64,000 bases of DNA from Bacilli bacterium (GTDB lineage: Bacteria; Bacillota_I; Bacilli_A; RF39; UBA660). This document shows, piece after piece, positions 8,238 through 12,865 of this stretch. The notes beneath the pieces are model-generated. The model ran no database searches and was not told where the DNA came from. It worked only from the letters and a program-made list of their open reading frames with translations. Location of the stretch: contig JAFRCK010000023.1 in assembly GCA_017404385.1 (NCBI GenBank), forward strand, positions 124,001-188,000, read 5' to 3'. The position numbers and the translations under genes are program-made. How positions within the stretch are numbered: position 1 is the stretch's first letter; every line of letters begins with the position of its first letter.

Positions 8238-9134
8238 ATGAAAAAAAGTAAAATACTATTTGTGATTCCAAGCTTATTAATTACATTTTTAATAAGTGCA
8301 TATCCAACATTATTAATTATGAAAGATATTAAAAAATATAATAGTCCTTTATTTGGAATGATATGGGTTGGGTATTTATTAGTATTGATATTGATGTTTA
8401 TTTGGTTATTATATCAATTAATTGTCTTAATAAGATTTGTTATTAAATCTGAAATGAAAGCTCCAATAAAGATATTATGGATAATTATGTTAATAGTTTT
8501 TAACGTTTTAATAATACCTTATTTTTATATTAAATTTATAAATCAAAATAGAAATATAATTGTTAGAGCGTTATTATATTTATTACCGATGATTGCATTT
8601 ACTTTTATATTCTTTTTTGGATTAAATAAATATGATTCTGAGTTAAAAAGAATAGAAGAAGAAAAGAAAGCGATTGAAGCTGAAAGACATACATATACAT
8701 CAAAAGATGGTAGTGTTTCCTTTACTTTTAGGCATGGCTATGTAAATAGTGATGTAGGTGAATATGATTTATATGTAAAAAATGATGAAGAAAAAGTAGT
8801 ATTTACTACTTTTGTATATAATACAGCTTTATATGATCAACAAACTTCAGATGATTTTTTATCAAAAGGAATTAATGATATATCCGCAAATAAAAAAGTA
8901 TTTGATTTATTTGAAGATAAAATAGAAAAAGATTATGAGGATAAAGTTATAAAAACTATTAGTTATAAAGGTAAAACGGAATCTTCTGCCTTATGTATAT
9001 ATAGAATCTCAACAATTGAATTTAAAAATGTACCAAATTATTTAGTTTATACAGTTGAAATAGTTACTGAAAGTAATTATAAGAAAGAATTAAACAAATT
9101 GGATGAAATTTTAATAAGTGCGAAAAAAAATTAA
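8238..9134 (+). CDS. Uncharacterised 4-TM membrane protein
   Basis: 298 residues; family not recognised. Four membrane segments fall at about residues 5-27, 40-65, 74-96 and 108-126. A short charged helix (KRIEEEKKAIEAERH) follows, then a soluble C-terminal domain beginning TYTSKDGSVSFTF. The domain looks beta-rich and resembles small lipid- or envelope-facing domains that measure sigmoid beta sheets in DUF-type proteins, but I cannot name it. Monocistronic, with the RBS aggagaa. No link to the neighbouring metal operon or the exporter is visible. Confidence 0.75.
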   Translation: MKKSKILFVIPSLLITFLISAYPTLLIMKDIKKYNSPLFGMIWVGYLLVLILMFIWLLYQLIVLIRFVIKSEMKAPIKILWIIMLIVFNVLIIPYFYIKFINQNRNIIVRALLYLLPMIAFTFIFFFGLNKYDSELKRIEEEKKAIEAERHTYTSKDGSVSFTFRHGYVNSDVGEYDLYVKNDEEKVVFTTFVYNTALYDQQTSDDFLSKGINDISANKKVFDLFEDKIEKDYEDKVIKTISYKGKTESSALCIYRISTIEFKNVPNYLVYTVEIVTESNYKKELNKLDEILISAKKN

Positions 9135-9135
9135 A

Positions 9136-9165
9136 AAATTTCCTATATTATAGGGGATTTTTTTA
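9136..9165 (+). terminator. Terminator before the exporter gene
   Basis: AAATTTCCTATA can pair with TATAGGGGATTT (two G-T pairs), followed by a T run. Its 3' arm overlaps the GGGGA element of the putative sigma-H promoter. Confidence 0.6.
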
Positions 9166-9184
9166 TTTTGACGGAGAATATAAT
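9153..9184 (+). promoter_or_regulatory. Putative sigma-H promoter of the peptide exporter
   Basis: GGGGATTT, 14 bases, then AGAAT (GAAT at 9176-9179) fits the sigma-H pattern AGGAnnT-N14-HGAAT. The 19-base block TTTTGACGGAGAATATAAT (9166-9184), and the 13-base offset from GGGGA, recur exactly before dnaG. Transcription would start almost at the Shine-Dalgarno sequence (ggaggg, 9189-9194), giving a very short leader. Confidence 0.6.
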
Positions 9185-9199
9185 CTTTGGAGGGAGATT

Positions 9200-11158
9200 A
9201 TGTTCAAATACACAAAACAAGAAGGATTACAAGATTGTGGTATTTGTTGTCTATTAAATATTATCAGATATTATGGAGGAAATACTGATATTGAAAAACT
9301 TAGGAAGATGACAAATACTAATGAAGGTGGTACTTCAATTTACAATTTGCTGGAAGCATCAAATAAATTAGGTTTTGAATCTAAAGCATATAAATGTAAA
9401 ATTAATGATTTAGATTCTCAGACATATCCTTTGATTGCATACATTAAGATAAAAGGATATAATCATTTTGTTATTATTAATGATATAACAAATGATTTAG
9501 TTGATATATTTGATCCTATAAGGGGTAGAATTAAATATAAAATTAATGATTTTTTAAATGAATGGCAAAATGTAATTATAACATTTGATAGGAAAGGGGA
9601 TATCATTAAAGAAAATAGTGATTATACTAATTACATTTTAAATATTTTTAAAAATTATAAGAAAAAAATTATTATAATAGCTGCTTTTTCCTTTTTAAGT
9701 AGTATATTTTCCATTATATACTCTTTATTTATAAAAATTCTATTTGATAATAAATTCACTTCTAATACCTTAATTCTTTTTTTATTTTTTATACTACTTA
9801 AAGGAATTATAGATTATTATCGTAACAAACAATCAATTGATATGAACAACAAATTGGATTTTGATATTACAAATAGTGTATATAAGAAAATACTCTCTCT
9901 CCCATTAAAATATCATCATGATAGACCAGTAGGTGATATTATTTATAGAATAAATGATTTAAATAATATTAAAGAATTCTTTAATACTTTTATAATTTCA
10001 TCAATTATCGATATCCTATTTTTCATTATTGCATTGTTCATACTTCTTTTTATTAGTTTTAAATTATTTTTAATTATTATATTAATAACTATTTCATTTG
10101 TTTTTATATACATATATTTTAGAAGGAATAATATTTTGTATATTAATGAATTGAAAGAAATAAGTTCAACTAACAATGCTGATTTAAGTGAAATGTTATA
10201 TGGAATTGACACAATTAAAAACTTAAATATAGAAGATAAATTTGAAAACAAACATAATTTAATATTTAATGAATATTTAAATTCGTTTAAAAAAACCTCA
10301 TCTTATTTTAATAAAGAAAATATAATATTTAATTATATAGAATCATCCGGTTTAATATTAATTATGTTTATAGGTTTGGCTTTACTAAAAGGTCATTCAA
10401 TATCTCTTGGTGAATTATCTTTAGTTTTTTCATTATATATTTCATATTTTGGGGCATTGAAAAATATTTTATCATTAGATAGATTAATTGTTCAATCTAA
10501 GATTTCATTTAAAAGGATTAATAATCTTTTAAATATTAAAAAAACTAGTCGAACTTGTAAATCCTTTCTAAAAAAAATAGATGAAATTAAATTTACTGGT
10601 AAATTAAATTTAACAGTTAATAAAGGTGATTTTGTTTTAGTAAATGGTATAAGTGGTATTGGAAAATCAACATTATTTAAATCTTTATATGAAAGCAATA
10701 ATAGTATTTTTATAAATAATAAACCTATTGATGAAATAAGTATCAATAGTATCAAAAATAATATTTGTTATGTTGGTCAAAATGAATATTTATTTACAGG
10801 TTCTTTAAAAAGTAATCTTTTAATGTTTAAGGGATCAAACAATAAGGAAATTAATAAAGCATTGAAAACGACTTTGTTAGATAAAACAATTAAGTCTAAG
10901 AACATTAATTTAGATTATCTATTAGAAGAAAATGGTCACAATTTATCTGGTGGTGAAAAGAAAAAAATATTATTAACTAGAGCTCTTCTTAGGAATACAG
11001 ATTACATTATTTTTGATGAAACTTTTGATGAAATAGATATAGAAAGTGAAAGAAAAATAATTAATAATATAAAAACAAATTATAAAAAAACTATAATTGT
11101 TATTTCTCATAGATTAAGTAATTGTGATTTGTATAATAAGAAAGTTCAAATGATGTAA
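9200..11158 (+). CDS. C39-peptidase ABC exporter for double-glycine peptides
   Basis: Bifunctional transporter that cuts the leader of a peptide after Gly-Gly and exports the rest. The N-terminal C39 domain has Cys13 in QDCGICCL, His89 in GYNHFVII and Asp105 in IFDP, a complete catalytic triad. A membrane domain with about 5-6 helices follows (about 155-430). The nucleotide-binding domain has Walker A GISGIGKST (about 483-492), signature LSGGEKKK (about 580), Walker B IIFDET and switch ISHR. At 652 residues it is shorter than typical exporters (about 700-720). Two tiny leader-peptide genes follow directly, the first RBS overlapping its stop codon. No HlyD-type accessory protein is present. 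Codon and base use match the neighbours. Confidence 0.9.
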   Translation: MFKYTKQEGLQDCGICCLLNIIRYYGGNTDIEKLRKMTNTNEGGTSIYNLLEASNKLGFESKAYKCKINDLDSQTYPLIAYIKIKGYNHFVIINDITNDLVDIFDPIRGRIKYKINDFLNEWQNVIITFDRKGDIIKENSDYTNYILNIFKNYKKKIIIIAAFSFLSSIFSIIYSLFIKILFDNKFTSNTLILFLFFILLKGIIDYYRNKQSIDMNNKLDFDITNSVYKKILSLPLKYHHDRPVGDIIYRINDLNNIKEFFNTFIISSIIDILFFIIALFILLFISFKLFLIIILITISFVFIYIYFRRNNILYINELKEISSTNNADLSEMLYGIDTIKNLNIEDKFENKHNLIFNEYLNSFKKTSSYFNKENIIFNYIESSGLILIMFIGLALLKGHSISLGELSLVFSLYISYFGALKNILSLDRLIVQSKISFKRINNLLNIKKTSRTCKSFLKKIDEIKFTGKLNLTVNKGDFVLVNGISGIGKSTLFKSLYESNNSIFINNKPIDEISINSIKNNICYVGQNEYLFTGSLKSNLLMFKGSNNKEINKALKTTLLDKTIKSKNINLDYLLEENGHNLSGGEKKKILLTRALLRNTDYIIFDETFDEIDIESERKIINNIKTNYKKTIIVISHRLSNCDLYNKKVQMM

Positions 11159-11167
11159 AGGAGGTTT

Positions 11168-11308
11168 ATGAGAGAATTATCTATAAAAGAAAAAAGTGAG
11201 ATTACCGCAGGTGGATTAAGCTTTTTTGGTTTTGCGGCAATTGCATCGGGTATTTCATTTATAGTAGGTATATTTGATGGTATAGCTCGTGTTTTAAAAT
11301 GTCATTAA
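11168..11308 (+). CDS. Double-glycine leader peptide 1 (putative bacteriocin/signal)
   Basis: 46 codons, RBS aaaggagg overlapping the exporter stop codon. The leader MRELSIKEKSEITAGG (16 residues) is a classic double-glycine leader. The predicted mature peptide of 30 residues is hydrophobic and Gly/Ala/Ile-rich (starting LSFFGFAAIASG), with GxxxG-like spacing, and ends VLKCH. The leader is shared with the next small gene, arguing that both are processed by the adjacent C39 exporter. Most likely one half of a class IIb-type two-peptide bacteriocin; a secreted signal or sporulation-linked toxin is also possible. Confidence 0.85.
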   Translation: MRELSIKEKSEITAGGLSFFGFAAIASGISFIVGIFDGIARVLKCH

Positions 11309-11321
11309 AGGGGGGGATTAT

Positions 11322-11486
11322 ATGAGAGAACTATCAAAAAAAGAATCTATGGAATTATATGGTGGTGGTATAACCGCAGCGTTATTTAACGCAATTACAA
11401 AGGGATTTAGTATTTTTGTTGATATAGGTAGATTCTTAGGTTCTTCTATAAGAAGAATATTTGACAATAAGTTATGCGATTATTAA
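11322..11486 (+). CDS. Double-glycine leader peptide 2 (putative bacteriocin/signal)
   Basis: 54 codons, RBS gggggga at good spacing, 13 bases after peptide 1. The leader MRELSKKESMELYGGG aligns with that of peptide 1 without gaps (MRELS, KE and GG in common), so cleavage after residue 16 leaves 38 residues. The mature part is amphipathic (GFSIFVDIGRFLGSS, then IRRIF) and ends KLCDY, with one Cys near the C-terminus as in peptide 1. The two mature parts are only loosely similar, as in two-component bacteriocins. Confidence 0.85.
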   Translation: MRELSKKESMELYGGGITAALFNAITKGFSIFVDIGRFLGSSIRRIFDNKLCDY

Positions 11487-11487
11487 A

Positions 11488-11516
11488 AAAAAGAGGGTAT
11501 TTCCCTCTTTTAGTAT
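11488..11516 (+). terminator. Terminator of the exporter-peptide operon
   Basis: AAAGAGGG pairs with CCCTCTTT (loop TATTT), followed by T residues. It marks the operon as exporter plus the two peptides. Confidence 0.9.
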
Positions 11517-11560
11517 TTTATATAGTGTGATATAATTAAAATTCGTGAGGAGTGAATCGC

Positions 11561-12865
11561 ATGAATTCAGAATTAAAAAAAGAATATGATAAAATAGAAG
11601 GTATTTTAAAAGAATTATATGATATGCTTAATAAAGCTAAAAGTAATGGAACACCAGAAAAAGGTATTAATTATATTTTAGATGCTATAAAAAGTGTTCG
11701 AGAAGATGAAAGCAAGATAGTTAAACAAATAAGAGATAATATATATAAGAGATATACAATTAAAGATATAAATGAATATGCATCTTTAAGGGAAGAATAT
11801 TTAAAGAAAAAAGAAGAAAAAGAAAAGAGAAGAAGACTAATAATTGAAAAAAATAATCAAATGTTTTCTGATGCTTATATTATTTTTGATGGTGTATATA
11901 AAATTATTTATAATGATGGAAAAGGAGTTCTTACACGTAGACTTGATAGACAACTACTAGATAAAGATGATAATAATAAAATGGATTATAATATATGTGA
12001 TTTTTTAAGATCTATTGATTCAGATTATAACACTAATTTGTTTAAGAAATATCTTGAAGGTAATTTACCAGTTACTTATGATTTTTCAAAAGCTACTAAA
12101 CTTGATAGAAAATCATATAAAAGATTAAAAAAAGTTGCTAATAAAGGAATTGAATCTAATGATAAAATTGATGTTATTGGTAAGAAAAACAAATTAAAAT
12201 ATGCAGGTGCTTTAGTAGCTTTAGGAACAATGTTTGTTTTATCAGCAATTGGCATTAAGCAAAAAAATAAGACTACAGAAGTAGAAGATAATATTTCAGT
12301 ATCTAACGAAGTAAAAAAAGAAGAATCCACTATAGAATTGATTGCCAAAGAAATATATCAAGGAAAAAAAGAAGAACAACCAGTAATAATAAAAAAAGAA
12401 ACTCCTATTAATATTAAAGTAGAACAAAATAAGCAAAAGGATAAAATAGAAGAAGTTAAAAAAATAAAAATAAATATAGATAATAAAGAACAAGAAGTAA
12501 TATCAAAAGAAGATGAGTTTAATGGTTTATCAATTGGTTCAACTGTTAAATTACCTGATATGGATTTATATTATTCAAGTACAGAAAATAAACCGGTTAG
12601 TAATACAAAATATTTATCTGCACCAACAGGCATATATAAAATAAGTTTAATCTCAATTGTTTATAAAGGTAGATGTTTAGAAGTAATATCTAAAGAAACA
12701 TCACTTGATACATTAAGAGAGTATGTAGATTTAAAATATGGAGAAGATGTTAAGGTTTTTGTAAATTTTGATGTTGTTACGGAACAAGGGAAAACAGTAT
12801 ATAAGAATGTAGGTTGGACTGATAGTGAGATTTTATATAAAAAAAGTAAAGTAATGATTAAATAA
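11561..12865 (+). CDS. Uncharacterised single-pass membrane protein
   Basis: 434 residues from ATG 11561, chosen over GTG 11552 because gaggag lies 8 bases before it. The N-terminal cytoplasmic half is helical and charged (about 1-210). One membrane segment follows at about 213-232 (GALVALGTMFVLSAIG), then a long Lys/Glu-rich linker and a C-terminal extracellular domain of about 130 residues (from LSIGSTVKLPDMDLYYSS). The family is not recognised. It starts after the terminator of the peptide cassette, so it is probably a separate unit. An immunity role cannot be excluded but nothing in the sequence shows it. Confidence 0.75.
   Translation: MNSELKKEYDKIEGILKELYDMLNKAKSNGTPEKGINYILDAIKSVREDESKIVKQIRDNIYKRYTIKDINEYASLREEYLKKKEEKEKRRRLIIEKNNQMFSDAYIIFDGVYKIIYNDGKGVLTRRLDRQLLDKDDNNKMDYNICDFLRSIDSDYNTNLFKKYLEGNLPVTYDFSKATKLDRKSYKRLKKVANKGIESNDKIDVIGKKNKLKYAGALVALGTMFVLSAIGIKQKNKTTEVEDNISVSNEVKKEESTIELIAKEIYQGKKEEQPVIIKKETPINIKVEQNKQKDKIEEVKKIKINIDNKEQEVISKEDEFNGLSIGSTVKLPDMDLYYSSTENKPVSNTKYLSAPTGIYKISLISIVYKGRCLEVISKETSLDTLREYVDLKYGEDVKVFVNFDVVTEQGKTVYKNVGWTDSEILYKKSKVMIK

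What the first reader, a model, noticed from the sequence alone, without database searches (positions are those of the whole stretch)
9153..11516. Unlisted two-peptide double-glycine cassette with its own C39 exporter
Two genes of 46 and 54 codons directly follow a C39-peptidase ABC exporter with an intact catalytic triad. They encode matched 16-residue leaders (MRELSIKEKSEITAGG and MRELSKKESMELYGGG). The mature parts are short, hydrophobic/amphipathic and only loosely similar, as in two-component (class IIb) bacteriocins. Seen directly: leaders, RBSs, exporter, terminator closing the operon. Known: C39 exporters cut after GG. Inferred: antimicrobial or signalling role. These peptides are below usual gene-calling length and so may be undescribed.
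Basis: partly seen in the sequence, partly recalled or inferred. Interest (0 to 1): 0.85.

Follow-up and report, generated by a model that had tools for sequence, protein, structure and literature searches.

The report
Order-wide exported two-peptide pair
Two tiny genes behind their own peptide exporter, which look at first like an ordinary bacteriocin, turn out to be carried by nearly every species of a whole lineage of small-genome gut bacteria, so they look less like an optional weapon and more like a core secreted two-part membrane-active system whose target nobody knows yet.

Summary
A 652-aa C39-peptidase ABC exporter (9200-11158) is followed by two GG-leader ORFs of 46 and 54 aa (11168-11308, 11322-11486) and a terminator (11489-11511). 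It is the only C39 protein in this 1.3 Mb genome. The pair is real: profiles find peptide B in 177 of 193 genomes of the window's family (137 of 148 genera) and peptide A in 172, nearly always one copy each. Across 98-102 distinct sequences, both mature peptides keep a GxxxG motif and, in nearly all, one C-terminal Cys at a fixed distance (7 residues in A, 12 in B). dN/dS is about 0.3. Every B-positive genome has a C39 exporter; 10 of 16 B-negative ones lack it. Outside the family only the leader matches. Some relatives carry a third, leaderless, membrane-anchored B-like ORF overlapping the end of B: a candidate immunity protein.

Best explanation: it works like a class IIb (two-peptide) bacteriocin, two helices pairing through GxxxG in a target membrane. 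Unlike typical bacteriocins it is a core, vertically inherited trait, with an invariant Cys in each peptide. Antimicrobial activity was not testable, and no immunity gene was identified in the window itself. Novelty: new variant of a known kind.

The parts
9200..11158 (+). C39-peptidase ABC exporter (PCAT/ComA type), 652 aa, single polypeptide: peptidase + TM + ATPase
   Evidence: only C39 in the genome
9203..9595 (+). C39 peptidase domain, residues 2-132, catalytic Q7/C13/H89/D105
   Evidence: PF03412, residues 2-132; aligned to PCAT1
11157..11164 (+). ribosome-binding site of peptide A (AAAGGAGG)
   Evidence: sequence
11168..11308 (+). peptide A precursor, 46 aa: 16-aa GG leader + 30-aa hydrophobic mature peptide with GIFDG (GxxxG) and single Cys 7 residues after the second G
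   Evidence: predicted helical
11310..11316 (+). G-rich putative ribosome-binding site of peptide B
   Evidence: sequence
11322..11486 (+). peptide B precursor, 54 aa: 16-aa GG leader + 38-aa cationic mature peptide with GRFLG (GxxxG), RR, and single Cys 12 residues after the second G
   Evidence: predicted helical
11489..11511 (+). intrinsic terminator closing the operon
8238..9134 (+). 298-aa membrane protein with an extracytoplasmic domain, neighbour of the exporter in 9 of the 11 other genus genomes and in G115; function unknown, membership in the system uncertain
   Evidence: no Pfam family

Best explanation
A class-IIb-like two-peptide system. Both precursors are recognised by their matched leaders, cut after GG and exported by the neighbouring C39 exporter (shown by anatomy and co-occurrence; cleavage itself is inferred). 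The mature peptides are helices: A is very hydrophobic (28-39 aa, GxxxG, C-terminal Cys), B is cationic (GxxxG-S-x-x-RR, C-terminal Cys). In a membrane they pair in parallel through the two GxxxG motifs, putting both C-terminal cysteines on the same side, possibly joined by a disulphide (inferred). The most likely action is to permeabilise membranes of neighbouring bacteria, in the manner of lactococcin G or plantaricin S. In about half of the other genera examined, a leaderless membrane-anchored mimic of B (ORF C) could occupy A's partner site and protect the producer (inferred). What sets it apart is that the lineage keeps it as a core, vertically inherited trait. A small-genome, possibly amino-acid-auxotrophic gut bacterium could use it for nutrient release as much as for competition (speculation).
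For: Dedicated exporter: one C39 in the genome; 177 of 177 B-positive genomes have a C39, and 10 of 16 B-negative genomes lack it, Fisher p=5e-13. Exporter closest in PDB to PCAT1, E=2e-69. Conserved pair. GxxxG in 97 of 98 A and 102 of 102 B; spacing of second G to Cys is 7 in 96 of 96 A and 12 in 100 of 101 B. Published statement that all characterised class IIb bacteriocins have GxxxG or GxxxG-like motifs (PMC6382864). TIGR03949 class IIb cut-off (21.5 bits) passed by five of five A homologues tested, best 32.0 bits; weak LcnG-alpha match of B over the GxxxG region. Helices predicted. ORF C: GxxxG small TM ORF overlapping the B stop in 27 loci; its profile matches the C-terminal half of mature B (HH E=2e-7) and not A. 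dN/dS 0.3. G008: exporter interrupted and both leaders no longer GG.
Against: Near-universality, single copy and sequence conservation are not typical of bacteriocins. No immunity gene identified in the window: no ORF C and no ~140-aa accessory there. The window's own peptides match no bacteriocin model above its cut-off. No DsbA/BdbD-like (PF13462) match above cut-off and no VKOR in the genus, so an enzymatic disulphide is not supported. Antimicrobial activity untested.
Confidence: 0.55

Rival explanations
1. Core physiological (non-antagonistic) secreted heterodimer: A and B act on the producer's own envelope or its contact with host or partner cells, for example as a membrane channel, adhesion element or nutrient-uptake pore.
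For: 177 of 193 genomes and 137 of 148 genera, 183 of 193 with the broader profile; retained in genomes of 0.4-1.9 Mb; one copy; flanked by rpsU, yqeY or rsmD in 35 of 60 loci; purifying selection and no sign of diversification; invariant Cys/GxxxG geometry.
Against: Class IIb-like anatomy; ORF C in the classical immunity position; the system is absent from some good-quality genomes, and C39 with it, so it is not strictly essential.
Confidence: 0.25
2. Peptide signalling (pheromone) system exported by the C39 transporter.
For: ComC, bacteriocin induction peptides and class II bacteriocins share this leader type and exporter (weak ComC and EntF model hits).
Against: Two peptides that both carry GxxxG and Cys; no histidine kinase or response regulator recurrently next to the genes in 60 loci; sequence conserved across genera whereas pheromones usually diverge between strains (general knowledge).
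Confidence: 0.1
3. Ordinary accessory class IIb bacteriocin cassette, horizontally acquired.
For: Leaders, exporter and GxxxG motifs; TIGR03949 hits.
Against: Near-universal in one family and absent as full-length matches elsewhere in the class; conserved neighbourhood.
Confidence: 0.07
4. Spurious ORFs downstream of an exporter.
For: None found.
Against: Family-wide conservation, dN/dS 0.3, ribosome-binding sites.
Confidence: 0.01

Closest known systems
Class IIb two-peptide bacteriocins (lactococcin G, plantaricin S/EF/JK, lactobin A/cerein 7B family TIGR03949)
   Same: Two adjacent GG-leader genes, dedicated C39 exporter, helical mature peptides of about 30 and 40 residues, GxxxG in each; several A homologues pass the TIGR03949 cut-off.
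   Different: Near-universal core trait of one lineage; a single Cys in each peptide at fixed spacing from GxxxG; the window locus lacks an identifiable immunity gene; the window's own peptides pass no model cut-off; activity unknown.
PCAT1 / ComA / Mbov_0121-type C39 exporters
   Same: Peptidase + TM + ATPase in one chain, catalytic residues kept; best NCBIfam model by E-value is NF045998 Mbov_0121.
   Different: Below the cut-offs of NF045998 and TIGR01193, so a divergent member. In 41 of 60 family loci a ~140-aa single-TM accessory protein lies between exporter and A; it is absent in the window.
Rplu-linked GG-leader protein of Mycoplasmatales-like genomes (family f4)
   Same: Leader plus the first 12-15 mature residues match the B profile; the six f4 genomes have a C39 exporter.
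   Different: One larger protein (88-130 aa), no GxxxG-Cys pair, no adjacent exporter.

Membership tests
Class IIb two-peptide bacteriocin | Two adjacent small genes with double-glycine leaders | tested here: met
   GG exact in 95 of 99 A and 100 of 102 B
Class IIb two-peptide bacteriocin | Dedicated C39-peptidase ABC exporter | tested here: met
   in 59 of 60 family loci the exporter lies just upstream
Class IIb two-peptide bacteriocin | GxxxG or GxxxG-like motif in the mature peptides | tested here: met
   97 of 98 A and 102 of 102 B; criterion from PMC6382864
Class IIb two-peptide bacteriocin | Helical membrane-active peptides | tested here: inconclusive
   Helices predicted at mean pLDDT about 75 from two-sequence alignments; membrane activity not testable
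Class IIb two-peptide bacteriocin | Immunity gene in the operon | tested here: inconclusive
   None identified in the window; candidate ORF C in 27 other loci
Class IIb two-peptide bacteriocin | Both peptides together needed for antimicrobial activity | not testable with these tools
   Needs synthesis and assay
TIGR03949 (lactobin A/cerein 7B family) | Score above the curated cut-off of 21.5 bits | tested here: not met
   Not met by the window's A or B (no match at E<=1); met by A homologues of other genera, 22.1-32.0 bits
NF045998 Mbov_0121 / TIGR01193 exporter families | Score above curated cut-off | tested here: not met
   288.8 of 500 and 264.8 of 523.85 bits
Peptidase_C39 (PF03412) | Gathering score and catalytic residues | tested here: met
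   121.5 bits against 22; Q, C, H, D aligned with PCAT1

The most novel reading that the evidence does not exclude
The pair is not an optional bacteriocin but a core secreted heterodimer, Cys-linked or thiol-based, that an entire lineage of reduced-genome gut bacteria keeps as part of its basic biology (nutrient piracy from neighbours, or action on its own or the host's surface), with a membrane-tethered copy of B as its regulator or immunity factor.
Probability: 0.35. Interest if true: 0.85.

Novelty: new variant of a known kind. Interest (0 to 1): 0.68.

Why it matters
[quoted passage not shown] A secreted two-peptide system present in about nine of ten species, single copy and conserved in sequence, is a rare experimental handle on a whole uncultured lineage: the peptides can be made chemically without growing the organism. 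If antagonistic, it would be a bacteriocin-like weapon fixed as a core trait across well over a hundred genera; if not, it would show that class IIb-like anatomy can serve ordinary physiology. The B-like ORF C gives a directly testable immunity-by-mimicry idea.

Tried and rejected
Pfam/NCBIfam on the window's peptides: nothing above cut-off; the MPN313 hit of A (E=0.0018) covers mainly the leader, and the same model gives only weak hits in the genus, so rejected as kinship. PDB search with family profiles of A and B: only leader-type matches (CtA peptide, carnobacteriocin B2) and chance. Two-component signalling partner: none recurrent among neighbour clusters. Disulphide machinery: no PF13462 above cut-off and no VKOR in the genus, which weakens but does not exclude a disulphide. 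Accessory ~140-aa protein and ORF C: no Pfam family; that the accessory is a reduced membrane-fusion-type helper of the exporter is only a guess from its one-TM, extracytoplasmic build. The upstream 298-aa protein as immunity gene: not co-conserved outside the genus and its nearest relative, not adopted. Literature: two papers on the RF39 lineage do not mention bacteriocins, and searches for RF39 with bacteriocin or class IIb terms gave nothing on such a pair; this is absence from the held library only.

Full report
WHAT IS THERE. The window carries a 652-aa exporter (9200-11158), peptide A (11168-11308) and peptide B (11322-11486), 9 and 13 nt apart, then a terminator at 11489-11511. The exporter has C39 peptidase, ABC membrane and ATPase domains, is closest in the PDB to PCAT1 (E=2e-69), and keeps the catalytic Q7, C13, H89 and D105 when aligned to it. 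It is the only C39 protein in the 1.3 Mb genome.

IS IT REAL AND HOW OLD. In the genus, 10 of 12 genomes have the adjacent pair behind the exporter. The exceptions: in G004 the contig ends in the exporter, and in G001 A is truncated and B sits about 3.6 kb downstream past a 1046-aa ORF. Profiles built from the genus were run over 193 genomes drawn evenly from the family: B in 177 (137 of 148 genera), A in 172 (134 of 148). A broader B profile finds 183 of 193 genomes of the order sample, 173 of 181 high-quality ones; all genomes drawn for the order belonged to the same family. In a 296-genome sample of the class, matches outside this family cover only the leader and the first few mature residues, for both A and B. 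So the mature pair is, at this sensitivity, a trait of one lineage. Of 60 family loci read in detail, 59 have the exporter just upstream, and 35 have rpsU, yqeY or rsmD next door (names of the neighbours read from their sequences), which points to vertical inheritance; no species-tree test was made. Pairwise dN/dS has medians of 0.32 (A) and 0.31 (B); many pairs are near synonymous saturation, but the close, unsaturated pairs also lie mostly well below 1 (0.04-0.42, one A pair 0.83). The frames are translated and under purifying selection.

EXPORTER AND PEPTIDES BELONG TOGETHER. All 177 B-positive genomes have a C39 protein, while 10 of the 16 B-negative ones lack it (Fisher p=5e-13). Relatedness among genomes is not corrected for. 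In G008 the exporter reading frame is interrupted and both leaders end in GEG/GSG instead of GG: both sides decayed together, or this is one assembly with errors.

THE INVARIANT GEOMETRY. Among 98 distinct A and 102 distinct B sequences, GxxxG is present in 97 and 102. The second Gly of the last GxxxG is exactly 7 residues before the Cys in all 96 A sequences that could be scored, and 12 in 100 of 101 B; the one outlier and the Cys-less entry trace to the truncated A of G001. Most mature peptides contain exactly one Cys (90 A, 97 B). Net charge is about +1 for A and +4 for B. Both precursors are predicted helical at moderate confidence. A parallel GxxxG-packed pair would place both Cys at the same end. 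A disulphide is therefore an attractive inference, but no BdbD/DsbA-like protein above cut-off and no VKOR was found in the genus, and these are anaerobes by inference.

OTHER PARTS IN RELATIVES. In 41 of 60 family loci a ~140-aa protein with one N-terminal TM segment and an extracytoplasmic part lies between exporter and A; no Pfam match. In 27 loci a 39-58-aa leaderless ORF, mostly overlapping the B stop codon, has an N-terminal TM helix and GxxxG. Its profile aligns with the C-terminal half of mature B (HH probability 93.6, E=2e-7) and not with A. I selected these ORFs partly for GxxxG, so the E-value is somewhat optimistic. It sits where class IIb immunity genes usually sit, and could work as a tethered decoy of B. 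The window's own genus has neither part. Its upstream 298-aa membrane protein is conserved beside the exporter in the genus, but nothing ties it to immunity.

COMPARISON WITH KNOWN SYSTEMS. All characterised class IIb bacteriocins carry GxxxG or GxxxG-like motifs (PMC6382864). Several A homologues pass the class IIb model TIGR03949 (22.1-32.0 bits against 21.5), so database annotation of some relatives as 'class IIb bacteriocin' is likely. The window's own peptides pass no model. The decisive membership feature, two-peptide-dependent antimicrobial activity, cannot be tested here. What it works like (class IIb) is better supported than what it is for.

WHAT IT IS FOR. My leading view is antagonism or nutrient release by membrane permeabilisation of neighbours. 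The near-universal, single-copy, conserved distribution is unusual for bacteriocins and leaves substantial room (0.25) for a non-antagonistic core role. Papers on the probable lineage (RF39) report small genomes, missing amino-acid pathways and mostly thin walls, and no bacteriocins (PMC7301438, PMC10868615). The lineage name is my inference, not a tool result.

Noticed in passing
L224-L228 (Mycoplasmatales-like genomes G295, G382, G452, G476, G547): A GG-leader protein (e.g. MQKLKDNELKDIKGGAASGALLNGIGSIIGKTGDFIID...) lies immediately beside rplU in four of the five loci read (not L226, which has two other GG-leader ORFs); all six f4 genomes checked have a C39 protein elsewhere. PMC6609329 says that the C39 transporter kept in JCVI-syn3A has no known GG-peptide substrate; a protein of this kind is a candidate worth checking.
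   Followed up: partly
L009/L014 (G008): Exporter reading frame interrupted and both peptide leaders lost the GG (GEG, GSG): possible joint decay.
   Followed up: partly
L041 (G001): A truncated without its Cys, and B displaced about 3.6 kb by a 1046-aa surface-protein-like ORF.
   Followed up: no
G055:C2:22877-23450: Tandem duplication A-B-A-B of the peptide genes.
   Followed up: no
L126 (G027): A methyltransferase-like ORF of 227 aa lies between A and B.
   Followed up: no
L156 (G200): Two further ABC-transporter ORFs (584 and 670 aa) follow B directly.
   Followed up: no
window 11552-12865: 437-aa coiled-coil/TM protein after the operon, fast-evolving (45% identity to G003 where neighbours are 79%), replaced by unrelated ORFs in several genus members; no Pfam family.
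   Followed up: no
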